64,000 bases of DNA, from assembly GCF_006874625.1 (NCBI RefSeq), contig NZ_CP030034.1, forward strand, positions 3,720,001-3,784,000, read 5' to 3'. Below, one piece after another: positions 6,716 to 11,394 of this stretch. The notes beneath the pieces are model-generated. The model was not told where the DNA came from, did no database searches, and saw only the letters and a program-made list of their open reading frames with translations. Source of the stretch: Bdellovibrio sp. NC01 (GTDB lineage Bacteria > Bdellovibrionota > Bdellovibrionia > Bdellovibrionales > Bdellovibrionaceae). Positions within the stretch are counted from its first letter, which is position 1. Every line of letters starts with the position of its first letter. The translations under genes and the position numbers were made by a program.

Positions 6716-8146
6716 TCACTTTACTGCGGGTTTACATAAACGAATTGTTTTTTCGGAACAATGAAAATTGCCCTGCAGTCGATGAGCAAAGTGCGTGTCG
6801 AGGAAAACTGGTTTCAATCCGATAGCTGTCAGCGATTGTGTTAAATCTTTTCTGAAACTCGTATTCACTGGATCTGGTAATAGATATTTATCTCCGAAAA
6901 CTTCCCCGTTACTTGGATTGGGAAATAACGACTGTGCAGATTCAATGCGCGGTTTAAAACCATGACGGATAGTCTGACGGATTTTACCAGCGAAATATTG
7001 CGGCACTTCGATGACATTCAAAGCACATTGCGGTCTATCCTTCTTCACTTGCGCCGTCAGATCTTTAATGAAGCCATCCATGCGTTCTTGCACATGATCC
7101 ATCGCCTTTTCATAATCTGAGTGCTCTTTAAAGAAATTTAGAAAATCTTTATTCTTAAATGAAAGACACGGAGCTAAATCCACATTTTGAGTGGCCTCGT
7201 CTGTAGGAAACGAGTCTTCAATCCAACGTGCCGTCGGAGTTTTTCGCTTCTTTCCCATCATACGCATACATAACATACGATAATAACGGCGATCTTCTAA
7301 TTGCACTAAGGCGTCTTCTTTGCGAAGGGGCTCGCCATTGTTATCGCGGAAATCAAAAAGCACATCGTCGGGATTTTCTTGCATCAACTTCTTTGCTTTG
7401 CGCGGACTTGCAATCATAATGGCCATGGGACATGACGATTCCGCACTCAATTTCACGACCGGTAAAGCCTTCACGACTTCATCAGCGTGCCCGACATTTA
7501 AAAATGATGTTGGTACTTTCATCACGGTCGCAGATCCACAGACCTGTTTGGCGATAGGCGCGAACTGGTCTTTCAAGTTGCTTGAACCTACAAGACACAA
7601 AGCACCCATCGCTAAGAAATTGCCACCATACTGCCCGCTCATTGCATCAGAACTCTTGGAATTGCTAAGCCCCGCACTGATGGTCGCGGATAACTCGGGC
7701 TTCATCGCACTGCTAAGAGCCTGAAGCAGTTTAACAGAATCAAAATTGCCATTATATTTCAGCAGCGGACGCAAAATCGGCGCACCACTTTTTGAATCAA
7801 ACTGAACAACCCATGGATCCTGCATCCAATTTGTTGATGGCACTTTGCTGATTCTTTGTAGTCTCTTCTTTTGCTCTTCGGAAAGATTCTTTTGCAATGC
7901 CGCGAAGTTATTCTTCTTAGCGATCAACAAAACATGCATATTTGGATCTTGAAGAACCTCAGGGATGACCTTCGTAAGCAAGCTCATCTTGTCTTCTAGA
8001 TAGCCTTGATTTGCAGCATCTGACATGACAATAAATTTTGCGGGATAAGACTCGTCTAAAATAGAAATCCCCGCAGGACAAACAGGCAATGGTTCTGAAT
8101 ATGCCTGACCAGCAATTGCAAAAATAAGAATAAGCCACTTCAACAT
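6716..8146 (-). CDS. Secreted protein-arginine deiminase (PAD)-like enzyme
   Basis: 476 residues with a Sec signal peptide (about residues 1-17). The body aligns by eye with the catalytic domain of protein-arginine deiminases (PF03068), which convert peptidyl-arginine to citrulline. NWMQDPW (Asp110) corresponds to the WIQDE motif; YGGNFLAMG to the glycine-rich GNLE region; NVGHADEV (His220, Asp222) to the GHVDEF motif; and FLDTHFAHRLQGNFHC (Cys463) to the human ending around HGEVHC with the nucleophilic cysteine. All four catalytic positions are present. It starts 6 bp after the ArsR-type regulator at 8153 and is probably co-transcribed with it. Export suggests it acts in the periplasm or on prey proteins (inference). 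Confidence 0.8.
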   Translation of the reverse strand: MLKWLILIFAIAGQAYSEPLPVCPAGISILDESYPAKFIVMSDAANQGYLEDKMSLLTKVIPEVLQDPNMHVLLIAKKNNFAALQKNLSEEQKKRLQRISKVPSTNWMQDPWVVQFDSKSGAPILRPLLKYNGNFDSVKLLQALSSAMKPELSATISAGLSNSKSSDAMSGQYGGNFLAMGALCLVGSSNLKDQFAPIAKQVCGSATVMKVPTSFLNVGHADEVVKALPVVKLSAESSCPMAIMIASPRKAKKLMQENPDDVLFDFRDNNGEPLRKEDALVQLEDRRYYRMLCMRMMGKKRKTPTARWIEDSFPTDEATQNVDLAPCLSFKNKDFLNFFKEHSDYEKAMDHVQERMDGFIKDLTAQVKKDRPQCALNVIEVPQYFAGKIRQTIRHGFKPRIESAQSLFPNPSNGEVFGDKYLLPDPVNTSFRKDLTQSLTAIGLKPVFLDTHFAHRLQGNFHCSEKTIRLCKPAVK

Positions 8147-8152
8147 AGGTCC

Positions 8153-8467
8153 CTATTCGCAAAAAATCTTATATAACGATCTTATCAGCTCAAGAACTCT
8201 TTTATCTACTATCTTATAGTAGACTTGTTTTCCATCGCGTTGCGCCTCTACCAGTCCTTCTAAACGCATACTCTTTAAGAATTGAGAAACTGCAGATTGA
8301 GAAGCGCCACAGGCTTCTTCTATCTCGCCTACAGATTTTTCACCGCTGGCCAGACTACAGAGTATTAACATCCTTTGGGGATGTGAAAGCTGCTTCATTA
8401 AGGCTGCAACTTCTTCACTTTTTTGTCTCATTTCGGACAGGACTTTTGGGTCACCTTGCTTTTTCAT
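8153..8467 (-). CDS. ArsR-family persulfide-sensing repressor, BigR/SqrR-like
   Basis: 104 residues with a winged helix (SVGEIEEACGASQSAVSQFLKSMR, about 45-68, then beta-wing GKQVYYKI). Cys37 sits in LILCSL and Cys103 in the last residues, KIFCE. The 66-residue spacing is that of the redox cysteine pair of SqrR/BigR, which forms a polysulfide bridge and releases DNA when sulfide or persulfide accumulates. A third cysteine is at 53. The gene is divergent from a sulfur operon, and an AT-rich palindrome lies between them, immediately upstream of its own start codon. It probably represses both directions. The PAD-like gene follows in the same orientation. Confidence 0.88.
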   Translation of the reverse strand: MKKQGDPKVLSEMRQKSEEVAALMKQLSHPQRMLILCSLASGEKSVGEIEEACGASQSAVSQFLKSMRLEGLVEAQRDGKQVYYKIVDKRVLELIRSLYKIFCE

Positions 8468-8468
8468 A

Positions 8469-8485
8469 TTATTATATTATAATAA
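8469..8485. promoter_or_regulatory. Candidate BigR/SqrR operator
   Basis: A perfect inverted repeat, TTATTATA-T-TATAATAA, between the divergent regulator and rhodanese operon. It begins two bases upstream of the regulator's start codon. The AT-rich character fits known BigR-type boxes. Confidence 0.65.
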
Positions 8486-8513
8486 CATAAAGTGTCAGTC
8501 AAGGAGAATAACC

Positions 8514-8849
8514 ATGAACACGAATGGCATCCCAGAAATAGCCCCTCAGGAACTCGCCGCCATAATGGACAAAGTAACGCTTATAGATGTGCGCCAACCA
8601 GAAGAATTCGTCGGCGAATTATCACATATTCCCAAAGCTCAACTAGTCCCATTAGGACAGGCGTTGGATACATATCTAACAAATCACAAAAACAAAGATG
8701 AACAGATTGTCTTCGTTTGTCGTAGCGGAGCCCGCTCGGGAAGAGCAACTACGCAGAGTATGGAATTGGGCTTCACCAACACGATCAATCTTCAAGGCGG
8801 CATGATCTTGTGGAACAACCTGAATTTGCCTGTCGCGGGAGGAAAATAA
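8514..8849 (+). CDS. Rhodanese-domain sulfurtransferase
   Basis: A 111-residue single rhodanese domain. The active-site loop is VCRSGARSGRA with Cys69, the sulfane-sulfur carrier. LIDVRQPEEF is the usual N-terminal CH2A motif, and the LQGGMILWNN ending is typical. It would move sulfur between persulfides and thiol or thiosulfate acceptors in the cytoplasm. It is the first gene of the five-gene sulfur operon, with an AAGGAG ribosome site, and its stop overlaps the next start as TAATG. Confidence 0.93.
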   Translation: MNTNGIPEIAPQELAAIMDKVTLIDVRQPEEFVGELSHIPKAQLVPLGQALDTYLTNHKNKDEQIVFVCRSGARSGRATTQSMELGFTNTINLQGGMILWNNLNLPVAGGK

Positions 8850-9280
8850 TGGACCCGTCTTTAGTTCTTTATCCTTTACTAGGAGGCGCAATCATAGGTG
8901 TCGCCGTCACGTTGATGCTGCTGTTTAACGGACGAGTTACTGGCATTAGCGGAATAGTTTCTTCTGCGATATCAACCAGAAGCTCGGATAACATGTGGCG
9001 ATGGGCATTTCTTATCGGTCTTACTATTGGTGGCGTCATCATTCACCTTCTTCATCCTGATCTGCTAACAAATTTATCAAACCGCAATTTCTTGCAGATC
9101 ATTATCGCCGGGGTTCTTGTGGGCTATGGAACCGTCATGGGCAGTGGTTGCACCAGTGGCCATGGAGTCTGCGGAATCAGCCGTTTCTCGATAAGATCTT
9201 TAATTGCTACTGCTACCTTTATACTATTCGGATTTCTTGCGGTCACAGCTTTGCGATTTTTAAATGGAGGCGCGCTATGA
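8849..9280 (+). CDS. YeeE/YedE-family sulfur transporter, first half
   Basis: 143 residues with four hydrophobic segments and the family signature MGSGCTSGHGVCG around residues 95-107, which holds conserved cysteines. Full-length YeeE/YedE (TsuA, SoxT-like) takes up thiosulfate-type sulfur compounds; here the protein is split into two adjacent genes, as is common. The ATG at 8849 is chosen because GGAGGAAAATA precedes it and it overlaps the rhodanese stop. The stop overlaps the next start as ATGA, pointing to translational coupling and a stoichiometric pair. Confidence 0.88.
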   Translation: MDPSLVLYPLLGGAIIGVAVTLMLLFNGRVTGISGIVSSAISTRSSDNMWRWAFLIGLTIGGVIIHLLHPDLLTNLSNRNFLQIIIAGVLVGYGTVMGSGCTSGHGVCGISRFSIRSLIATATFILFGFLAVTALRFLNGGAL

Positions 9281-9711
9281 AAAATACCCAACAAAGTTTC
9301 GTCGCATTTATAGTGGGCCTACTCTTCGCTTTTGGGCTAGCACTTTCAGGAATGACTCAACCTCAAAAGGTCATCGGCTTTCTTGATCCGTGGAACTGGA
9401 ATCCATCTTTGCTATTTGTGATGATTGGTGCAATCGGCGTTCACGTCATTAGTTATCCGATCGTTAAGAAACGAGCGTCACCACTTTTAGATACAAAATG
9501 GCACGTGCCAACACGAAAAGACATTACCGCACGATTGCTGCTCGGTTCGTTATTATTCGGAATTGGTTGGGGGTTGGGCGGCTATTGCCCCGGACCAGGC
9601 ATTACTTCTATAGCAAGCGGTGATATGCGCGCAGTCTTTTTTGTCGGCGCCATGCTTGTTGGTATGTTGCTATTCAAAAAAACTGAACCTCTCTTAAAGC
9701 TCAAGGAGTAA
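9277..9711 (+). CDS. YeeE/YedE-family sulfur transporter, second half (DUF6691-like)
   Basis: 144 residues, hydrophobic, with the second-half signature GWGLGGYCPGPGI near residues 100-113 containing the conserved cysteine. It pairs with the preceding gene to form a full inverted-repeat channel. The ATG at 9277 overlaps the upstream TGA, and GGAGG lies at a suitable distance. An open frame extends upstream in the same phase, but it runs antiparallel in meaning to the first half and is not translated in all likelihood. Confidence 0.87.
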   Translation: MKNTQQSFVAFIVGLLFAFGLALSGMTQPQKVIGFLDPWNWNPSLLFVMIGAIGVHVISYPIVKKRASPLLDTKWHVPTRKDITARLLLGSLLFGIGWGLGGYCPGPGITSIASGDMRAVFFVGAMLVGMLLFKKTEPLLKLKE

Positions 9712-9716
9712 CAAAC

Positions 9717-10520
9717 ATGGCAACTTTCGGATTGATCGCAAGTTTTCTGATGGGAATCATTCTGGGCTTAATGGGGGGCGGCGGATCGATATTAACTGTT
9801 CCCATTTTGGTTTATCTTTTTAATATCACTCCGACAATCGCAACCGGATATTCGCTTTTCGTTGTCGGAATTACAGCGCTAGTTGGCAGTTTTATGTATA
9901 TTCGAAAAGGAGATTTCGATTTTAAGGTCGGAATGGCCTTTGCGATACCCAGTGTGATTGGTGTTAATCTATCGCGTGGTTTAGTTATCCCCTTTATTCC
10001 TGACACGATATTTAGTTTCGGATTTCTTGAATTAACCAAAGAGATCCTTGTGATGATCGTGTTCGCAGTCCTTATGATCGCGGCATCTTACTCGATGATT
10101 AAAAGAAGAAAAGCCAACCCACCTTCTTCGAAAAACGAGCATTGGCGCATCATTCTTGTCGCAACTCAAGGTTTCGTTGTCGGATTGATTGCAGGTTTCG
10201 TCGGGGCTGGTGGAGGTTTTCTGATTATACCTGCCCTTGTTCTGCTGGCCGGTCTAACAATGAGAGTTGCCATTGGAACTTCGTTAACAATTATCGCCCT
10301 GCAATCTCTAATCGGCTTCGGTGGAGATATTTTACGGGGGAGCATTGTTGATTGGAAGCTCCTAGGTTTGATTGCTGGCACCGCGATGATCGGAATCGTT
10401 GCCGGCTCGCGTATCGCCCATAAAATAAATGAACAAAAGCTGAAAGTTTCATTCGGATGGTTCGTCTTAATTATTGGAGCAACCATCTTGCTTGAACAAC
10501 TTCGTCACATTTCGATGTAG
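9717..10520 (+). CDS. TauE/SafE-family sulfite/sulfonate exporter
   Basis: 267 residues with about eight hydrophobic segments. Two glycine-rich repeats, LGLMGGGGSILTVP near the N-terminus and GFVGAGGGFLIIP in the second half, are the paired signature of the TauE/SafE family (PF01925). In sulfide-oxidation operons these proteins export sulfite made by persulfide dioxygenase, and such a gene is next in this operon. A ribosome site (AAGGAG) lies upstream of the ATG. Confidence 0.92.
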   Translation: MATFGLIASFLMGIILGLMGGGGSILTVPILVYLFNITPTIATGYSLFVVGITALVGSFMYIRKGDFDFKVGMAFAIPSVIGVNLSRGLVIPFIPDTIFSFGFLELTKEILVMIVFAVLMIAASYSMIKRRKANPPSSKNEHWRIILVATQGFVVGLIAGFVGAGGGFLIIPALVLLAGLTMRVAIGTSLTIIALQSLIGFGGDILRGSIVDWKLLGLIAGTAMIGIVAGSRIAHKINEQKLKVSFGWFVLIIGATILLEQLRHISM

Positions 10521-10536
10521 ATAACAGGAGATTTTT

Positions 10537-11394
10537 ATGATTCAAATCAAAGAATTTTTCGATAAAAATACATGGACCCTTACTTACGTCGTATGGGATG
10601 AAAACACCAAAGACGCCATCGTCATTGATCCGGTTATGGATTATGATTCCGCAGCTTCTAAAATCAGTGATGTTTCAGCTCAAGCTGTTATCGAATTTGT
10701 GCGCGCCCACGAATTACGTCTGCACTTCATTCTTGAAACTCACGCTCATGCCGATCATCTTAGTGGCTCTCAGATAATTAAAAGAGCCTTCCCAGAAGCG
10801 CAGATCGCAATTGGCGAAAAGATCACAAAGGTTCAGGAAATCTTTAAAGGCGTCTTTGGCTTGCCGGAAGAGTTTAAAACTGACGGCTCGCAGTTTGATC
10901 GCCTTATTAAAGATGGGGAAGAATTTTTAGCGGGCTCTATTAAAATCAAAACCTTTTTTACTCCAGGCCATACACCGGCTTGCGCTTCCTACTACATTGA
11001 TGGAAATGTTTTCGTTGGTGATGCTTTATTTATGCCCGATTACGGCACGGGTCGCTGTGATTTTCCCGCTGGCAGTGCGACAGATTTGTATCGCTCCGTT
11101 CACGGAAGAATCTATGAGCTACCAGAGGACACGAAGGTGTACACAGGACACGATTACCTTCCCAACGGTCGCGCGCTAAAATTTATGTCGACCATCGCTG
11201 AAGAGAAAAAGGAAAACATTCAACTTAAAGGAACTACGGCACTCGAGGACTTCGTTAAGCTAAGAAACGAAAGAGATCGCACCCTCGCAGCACCAAAGCT
11301 TTTGTTGCCTTCAGTGCAGGTGAACATCGATGCCGGAAATCTTCCGCCCGCTGATCAAAACGGCAAGCGCTACCTGCGTATTCCCATCAGTTAA
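10537..11394 (+). CDS. Metallo-beta-lactamase-fold persulfide dioxygenase (Blh/ETHE1-like)
   Basis: 285 residues. Metal ligands are visible in ETHAHADH (His69, His71, Asp73, His74), FTPGHTPACASYY (second histidine) and GDALFMPDYGTGRCDFP, followed by TGHDY. ETHE1-type enzymes use one iron to oxidise glutathione persulfide to sulfite. The long C-terminal part after the TGHDY motif resembles the Blh subtype associated with BigR. It is the last gene of the sulfur operon, and sulfite produced could leave by the TauE-like exporter. No sulfide:quinone oxidoreductase gene is present in the operon. Bases 11400-11418 form a short GGAGGG/CCCTCC hairpin without a T-run. Confidence 0.9.
   Translation: MIQIKEFFDKNTWTLTYVVWDENTKDAIVIDPVMDYDSAASKISDVSAQAVIEFVRAHELRLHFILETHAHADHLSGSQIIKRAFPEAQIAIGEKITKVQEIFKGVFGLPEEFKTDGSQFDRLIKDGEEFLAGSIKIKTFFTPGHTPACASYYIDGNVFVGDALFMPDYGTGRCDFPAGSATDLYRSVHGRIYELPEDTKVYTGHDYLPNGRALKFMSTIAEEKKENIQLKGTTALEDFVKLRNERDRTLAAPKLLLPSVQVNIDAGNLPPADQNGKRYLRIPIS

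What the first reader, a model, noticed from the sequence alone, without database searches (positions are those of the whole stretch)
6716..8146. Exported protein-arginine-deiminase-like enzyme in a predator
Asp110, His220, Asp222 and Cys463 fall in the motifs of PAD catalytic residues, and the ending FAHRLQGNFHC matches the eukaryotic FxxHxxHGEVHC form. Bacterial members of PF03068 are uncommon. A secreted version could citrullinate or degrade arginine in prey proteins. The large spacing before the cysteine differs from human PAD.
Basis: partly seen in the sequence, partly recalled or inferred. Interest (0 to 1): 0.75.

Follow-up and report, generated by a model that had tools for sequence, protein, structure and literature searches.

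The report
Exported one-domain predator peptidylarginine deiminase
A Bdellovibrio predator carries an exported, stripped-down relative of the human enzymes that turn protein arginine into citrulline; it keeps the catalytic residues but none of the known calcium-binding sites, and many of its relatives across the phylum sit beside a gene for a previously unnoticed small exported partner protein that this genome lacks.

Summary
The 476-aa ORF at 6716-8146 (minus strand) has a signal peptide and D110, H220, D222 and C463. It does not hit Pfam PF03068 by itself, but 24 of 24 aligned relatives do. Their profile finds human PAD4 at 1e-30, and the predicted fold (pLDDT 85) matches the PAD4 catalytic domain (Z 32.5 over 331 residues). 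The four catalytic residues are invariant in 43 homologues.

Three things go beyond the finding. (1) This is a catalytic-domain-only PAD: PAD_N and PAD_M are absent, and so are their calcium sites. (2) The one calcium site usually kept by relatives (PAD4 E353/E411) is V113/L178 here, so no recognised calcium site remains. (3) PADs occur in 78 of 369 Bdellovibrionota genomes, and 28 genomes encode an undescribed exported four-cysteine protein directly beside the PAD gene. The window copy lacks it and lies 1.8 Mb from the usual locus, behind a persulfide-sensor-like ArsR gene.

Most likely it is a secreted, calcium-independent protein-arginine deiminase, probably active in the periplasm or bdelloplast. 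Activity and substrate are inferred. New variant of a known kind.

The parts
6716..8146 (-). PAD-like protein, 476 aa; catalytic-domain-only PAD
   Evidence: ORF; profile of relatives to PAD4 1e-30; AF2 model pLDDT 85, pTM 0.87; Foldseek PAD4 4.7e-16; VIA Z 32.5, residues 25-476 to PAD4 294-660
8096..8146 (-). Predicted Sec signal peptide, residues 1-17, likely cut after AYS
   Evidence: Sequence; hydrophobicity 2.62 over 10 residues and A-x-S site; pLDDT low there. No SignalP available
7817..7819 (-). D110, equivalent of PAD4 D350
   Evidence: Invariant in 43 of 43
7487..7489 (-). H220, equivalent of PAD4 H471
   Evidence: Invariant in 43 of 43; profile alignment to PAD4
7481..7483 (-). D222, equivalent of PAD4 D473
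   Evidence: Invariant in 43 of 43
6758..6760 (-). C463, nucleophile, equivalent of PAD4 C645
   Evidence: Invariant in 43 of 43; profile alignment to PAD4
7808..7810 (-). V113 where most relatives and PAD4 (E353) have a calcium-site-1 acid
   Evidence: PAD4 ligands in PMC13023937
7613..7615 (-). L178 where 39 of 43 aligned homologues (E or D) and PAD4 (E411) have a calcium-site-1 acid
7157..7375 (-). Family-variable helical insert (residues 258-330) that explains the long H-to-C spacing
8078..8080 (-). C23, probably disulfide-bonded to C471 (6734-6736)
   Evidence: Both lost together in distant homologues L021 and L030; C184/C203 also come and go together. Inference
8153..8467 (-). ArsR-family regulator directly upstream, 6 nt gap; cysteines placed as in BigR/SqrR sulfane-sulfur sensors
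   Evidence: PF01022 2.4e-12; order. Co-transcription and ligand are inferred

Best explanation
The gene encodes an exported, catalytic-domain-only relative of the eukaryotic peptidylarginine deiminases. After Sec export and disulfide formation, C463 would attack the guanidinium carbon of an arginine held by D110 and D222. H220 would act as acid/base, ammonia would leave, and water would release citrulline. Without PAD_N, PAD_M or an intact calcium site 1, it would work without calcium. Its substrate is most likely peptidyl arginine in the periplasm, of the predator itself or of prey during growth in the bdelloplast. Shown here: homology, fold, catalytic residues, domain loss, loss of calcium ligands, signal-like N-terminus. 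Inferred: activity, calcium independence, substrate, place of action.
For: Profile of 25 relatives finds PAD1-4 and PAD6 at 1e-30 to 1e-15 and nothing else. 24 of 24 other members hit PF03068, best 5.9e-27. AF2 model pLDDT 85, pTM 0.87; PAD4 is the top fold at 4.7e-16 and Z 32.5, 331 residues, 2.8 A. Alignment range 25-476 to 294-660 leaves no room for PAD_N or PAD_M. Catalytic residues invariant in 43. Calcium-1 acids replaced by V113 and L178; the position of PAD4 E351 (calcium site 2) is P111. Paired conservation of non-catalytic cysteines fits an oxidising compartment.
Against: No activity data. The branch is long (1.94 changes per column), so relaxed constraint is possible. PAD4 R374, a substrate-backbone ligand (my recollection), has no clear counterpart in the profile alignment. 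In human PADs calcium binding is needed to form the active site, so its loss could mean inactivity. AF2 was run with a shallow 25-row alignment and contains no calcium.
Confidence: 0.62

Rival explanations
1. Degenerate pseudoenzyme: a copy that lost its calcium site and partner and now persists without deiminase activity, perhaps as a binding or structural protein (as PAD6 is in oocytes).
For: Long branch; loss of both calcium-1 acids; no partner in the locus or genome; away from the canonical locus.
Against: All four catalytic residues, H462, N176, W107 and every conserved cysteine are kept; the ORF is intact with a good start and export signal.
Confidence: 0.2
2. A deiminase or related guanidino enzyme acting on small molecules (free arginine, agmatine, short peptides released in the bdelloplast) rather than on proteins.
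For: The wider guanidine-modifying superfamily includes such enzymes (general knowledge); PAD4's substrate-backbone arginine R374 is not clearly conserved; the genome has no PF04371 agmatine/PPAD-type enzyme.
Against: Sequence and best fold matches are to protein-arginine deiminases.
Confidence: 0.13
3. It works like the best explanation, but on the predator's own envelope proteins or under sulfide/persulfide stress, not on prey. The ArsR gene in front would switch it on together with the divergent sulfur genes. (Compatible with the best explanation's chemistry; a rival only about role.)
For: 6-nt gap behind an ArsR gene that faces rhodanese, YeeE/YedE-like, TauE and persulfide-dioxygenase-like genes.
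Against: No other PAD locus inspected has this neighbourhood, and a contig with a similar ArsR and dioxygenase occurs in G019, a genome without PAD.
Confidence: 0.25

Closest known systems
Human PAD4 and vertebrate PAD1-3, PAD6 (three domains)
   Same: Catalytic-domain fold, D/H/D/C residues, HxxxGxxHC ending
   Different: No PAD_N or PAD_M; exported; no recognised calcium site; extra disulfide-type cysteines and a helical insert; about 19% identity over aligned residues
Two-domain PADs of fungi, actinobacteria and other bacteria, and three-domain cyanobacterial PADs (Cummings et al., PMC8826395)
   Same: Bacterial PAD_C homologues with conserved catalytic residues
   Different: That paper reports a PAD_M domain and calcium sites 1 and 3 as conserved among homologues; here PAD_M is absent and site 1 is lost
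Canonical Bdellovibrio PAD (HD100-sized genome G003, 1847311-1848972, 559 aa) and Bacteriovorax relatives
   Same: Exported, one domain, same catalytic and cysteine pattern, about 30% identity
   Different: They keep calcium-1 acids and are followed by the small four-cysteine exported partner gene; the window copy has neither
Porphyromonas PPAD / agmatine deiminase (PF04371)
   Same: Secreted bacterial citrullinating enzyme; superfamily-level chemistry
   Different: Different family; no PF04371 match in this genome

Membership tests
PAD catalytic-domain (PAD_C) superfamily | Homology to PAD_C by sequence profile | tested here: met
   Profile A1 to PAD4 1e-30, only PADs found; 24 of 24 aligned relatives hit PF03068
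PAD catalytic-domain (PAD_C) superfamily | Single sequence passes the PF03068 cut-off by itself (a detection threshold, not a defining trait) | tested here: not met
   No PF03068 match at E up to 10; the link runs through relatives that do pass, and through the fold
PAD catalytic-domain (PAD_C) superfamily | PAD_C fold | tested here: met
   Z 32.5, 331 residues, 2.8 A to PAD4; Foldseek 4.7e-16
PAD catalytic-domain (PAD_C) superfamily | Catalytic Asp, His, Asp, Cys | tested here: met
   D110, H220, D222, C463, 43 of 43
PAD catalytic-domain (PAD_C) superfamily | Peptidyl-arginine deimination | not testable with these tools
   Needs purified protein
Calcium-regulated PADI (three- or two-domain) | PAD_M, with or without PAD_N | tested here: not met
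   Residues 25-476 align to PAD4 294-660; only a signal peptide precedes them
Calcium-regulated PADI (three- or two-domain) | Calcium site 1 acids (PAD4 E353, E411) | tested here: not met
   V113 and L178 (ligands from PMC13023937)
Calcium-regulated PADI (three- or two-domain) | Calcium site 2 (PAD4 E351 position) | tested here: not met
   P111; Y, S or other non-acidic residues in the relatives. D369 and N373 positions align poorly and were not judged
PPAD / agmatine deiminase, PF04371 | PF04371 match | tested here: not met
   None in the protein or the genome

The most novel reading that the evidence does not exclude
Predatory Bdellovibrionota use a secreted, calcium-independent, one-domain peptidylarginine deiminase to citrullinate proteins in the prey periplasm. 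In many relatives it is held in check, or assisted, by a co-translated exported beta-structured partner; the window species has dispensed with that partner and put the enzyme behind a sulfur-responsive regulator.
Probability: 0.2. Interest if true: 0.85.

Novelty: new variant of a known kind. Interest (0 to 1): 0.6.

Why it matters
Citrullination by PADs is studied almost only in vertebrates, where active PADs need calcium. A minimal exported bacterial PAD without calcium sites would show what the catalytic domain needs by itself. It would also extend protein citrullination to predatory bacteria and offer a calcium-free tool enzyme. The linked partner family, found beside the PAD gene in 28 of the 31 genomes where its profile matched, is a directly testable candidate for a natural PAD inhibitor or helper.

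Tried and rejected
Pfam on the window protein alone gave no PAD, so the finding would have looked unsupported without relatives. Close-relative scans of genome contigs and plasmids found nothing. A link between calcium-site loss and missing partner is suggestive by counts (4 of 16 against 0 of 27, Fisher p 0.015), but not once the tree is considered (sign test p about 0.25), so it is not claimed. The idea that the partner is a known inhibitor fold is unproven: its model (pLDDT 82, eight strands) gave only weak matches (best Foldseek E 0.058, best Z 7.8), no Pfam match and no significant PDB sequence match (best E 0.053). Whether the second partner type (A4) is homologous to the first is unclear (hhalign probability 32%). 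No paper on a Bdellovibrio PAD was found, nor a mention in the main texts of a predation proteome and a secretome review. A control rate of PADs in other phyla could not be measured with the same search, so the comparison with other bacteria rests on the published 0.76%.

Full report
What is there. The ORF 6716-8146 on the minus strand encodes 476 aa, beginning with a Sec-type signal peptide (MLKWLILIFAIAGQAYS|EP) and ending HRLQGNFHCSEKTIRLCKPAVK. The host genome is one 3,975,853-base contig. G003 and G009 of the same genus have the sizes I recall for B. bacteriovorus HD100 and Tiberius, and G010 has the same length as the strain kdesi chromosome found, so the genus is Bdellovibrio. The window species itself is not named by the tools.

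Is it a PAD? By itself the protein matches no PAD model in Pfam, and phmmer sees PAD4 only at E 0.17. Relatives resolve this. Direct search finds homologues in 10 other genomes of the family at 26-39% identity. The PF03068 model finds PADs in 61 of 369 genomes of the phylum. Aligned together, 24 of 24 other members hit PF03068. The alignment's profile finds human PAD1-4 and PAD6, and nothing else, at 1e-30 to 1e-15. The AF2 model has mean pLDDT 85 and pTM 0.87. Foldseek ranks PAD4 first at 4.7e-16, and VIA-align gives Z 32.5, 331 residues, 2.8 A. D110, H220, D222 and C463, plus W107, N176, E223, C239, C374, N413, H455, G459 and H462, are identical in all 43 homologues compared.

Architecture. 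Model residues 25-476 align to PAD4 294-660; only the signal peptide lies before that. PAD_N and PAD_M, and calcium sites 3-5 with them, are absent. In most relatives the catalytic Asp also lies only 102-190 residues from the start, too near for a signal peptide plus a PAD_M of about 175 aa, so the Bdellovibrionota PADs look like a one-domain exported type. The published survey of PADs describes only three-domain and two-domain types and says calcium sites 1 and 3 are conserved in them (PMC8826395).

Calcium. PAD4 site 1 uses residue 349, E353 and E411; site 2 uses E351, D369 and N373 (PMC13023937). The aligned window residues are Q109, V113 and L178 for site 1, and P111 at the E351 position. 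Most relatives keep the acids at 113 and 178 (E or D at 178 in 39 of 43); the window protein, L027, L035 and L039 lack both. So no known PAD calcium site is left intact in this protein. That this makes it calcium-independent is inference; inactivity is the rival reading.

Cysteines. The protein has eight cysteines besides C463. C23 and C471 are both lost in L021 and L030, and C184 and C203 are present or absent together in distant homologues. This fits disulfides and an exported protein, but pairing was not measured.

A linked partner. In many relatives the PAD gene is followed, often with a 4-nt overlap (ATGA), by a gene for a small exported protein of 126-166 aa with four invariant cysteines and little else conserved. 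Across 369 genomes the partner profile matches 31. In 28 it lies within 140 bases of a PAD on the same strand, 26 downstream and 2 upstream. Of the other three, two look spurious (a short match with frame breaks, and a signal-peptide-only match) and one is on a short contig of an 84% complete genome. In the genus, 6 of 6 canonical PADs have it; at E 1e-4 none of the 18 other genomes does. Its model is an eight-stranded beta structure (pLDDT 82) with only weak structural matches and no family match. A more distant PAD clade has another downstream exported small protein of similar size (alignment A4). I think the partner is an inhibitor or folding helper of the exported PAD; this is inference from linkage only.

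The window copy is an odd one. At the canonical locus (between a tsaE-like gene and a cysteine-desulfurase-like gene) this genome has an acetyltransferase-like ORF instead of PAD plus partner (L121; identity judged by eye). Its PAD sits about 1.84 Mb away. The stop codon lies one base from that of a convergent MFS gene, leaving no room for a partner, and no partner is found in the genome. In the tree it falls inside a clade of 13 mostly partner-bearing Bdellovibrionales PADs (support 97/99) on a long branch, so its exact place is unsure. Upstream, 6 nt away, is an ArsR-family gene facing rhodanese, YeeE/YedE-like, TauE and metallo-beta-lactamase (persulfide-dioxygenase-like) genes. The ArsR protein has cysteines at LILCSL and IFCE, as I recall for BigR/SqrR sensors (background: PMC5823870). 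Co-expression is plausible but untested.

Function. The best reading is a secreted arginine deiminase that needs no calcium, acting on peptidyl arginine in an envelope compartment. Action on prey is plausible from the lifestyle but has no direct evidence. No paper on a Bdellovibrio PAD was found.

Confidence. Homology to the PAD catalytic domain, about 0.97. Exported, about 0.9. Active deiminase, about 0.7. Calcium-independent if active, about 0.75. Acts on prey, about 0.3.

Noticed in passing
L005:992-1486 (-) and equivalents beside PAD genes in 28 genomes: Undescribed exported protein family with four invariant cysteines and a predicted eight-stranded fold, encoded next to exported PAD genes (28 of 31 detections); absent from the window genome.
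   Followed up: yes
L036:2700-3128 (+), L040, L025, L029, L037: A second type of small exported protein overlaps the PAD stop codon in a more distant PAD clade; homology to the first type is unclear (hhalign 32%).
   Followed up: partly
window 8153-11394: ArsR gene (BigR/SqrR-like cysteines) divergent from rhodanese, YeeE/YedE-like, TauE and metallo-beta-lactamase genes; the PAD gene is directly behind the ArsR gene, seen only in this genome among those inspected.
   Followed up: partly
L121:7504-8085 (-): In the window genome an acetyltransferase-like ORF occupies the canonical PAD-partner locus; other PAD-less species have different single genes or nothing there (L122-L124), so the site looks like a variable spot.
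   Followed up: partly
G126, G218, G040: G126 has at least four PAD loci, G218 has two close together, and G040 has PAD pieces with in-frame stops (a broken copy).
   Followed up: no
L088, L081: PADs of this family in MAGs labelled Nitrosovibrio and Proteobacteria; either transfer or mis-binned contigs.
   Followed up: no
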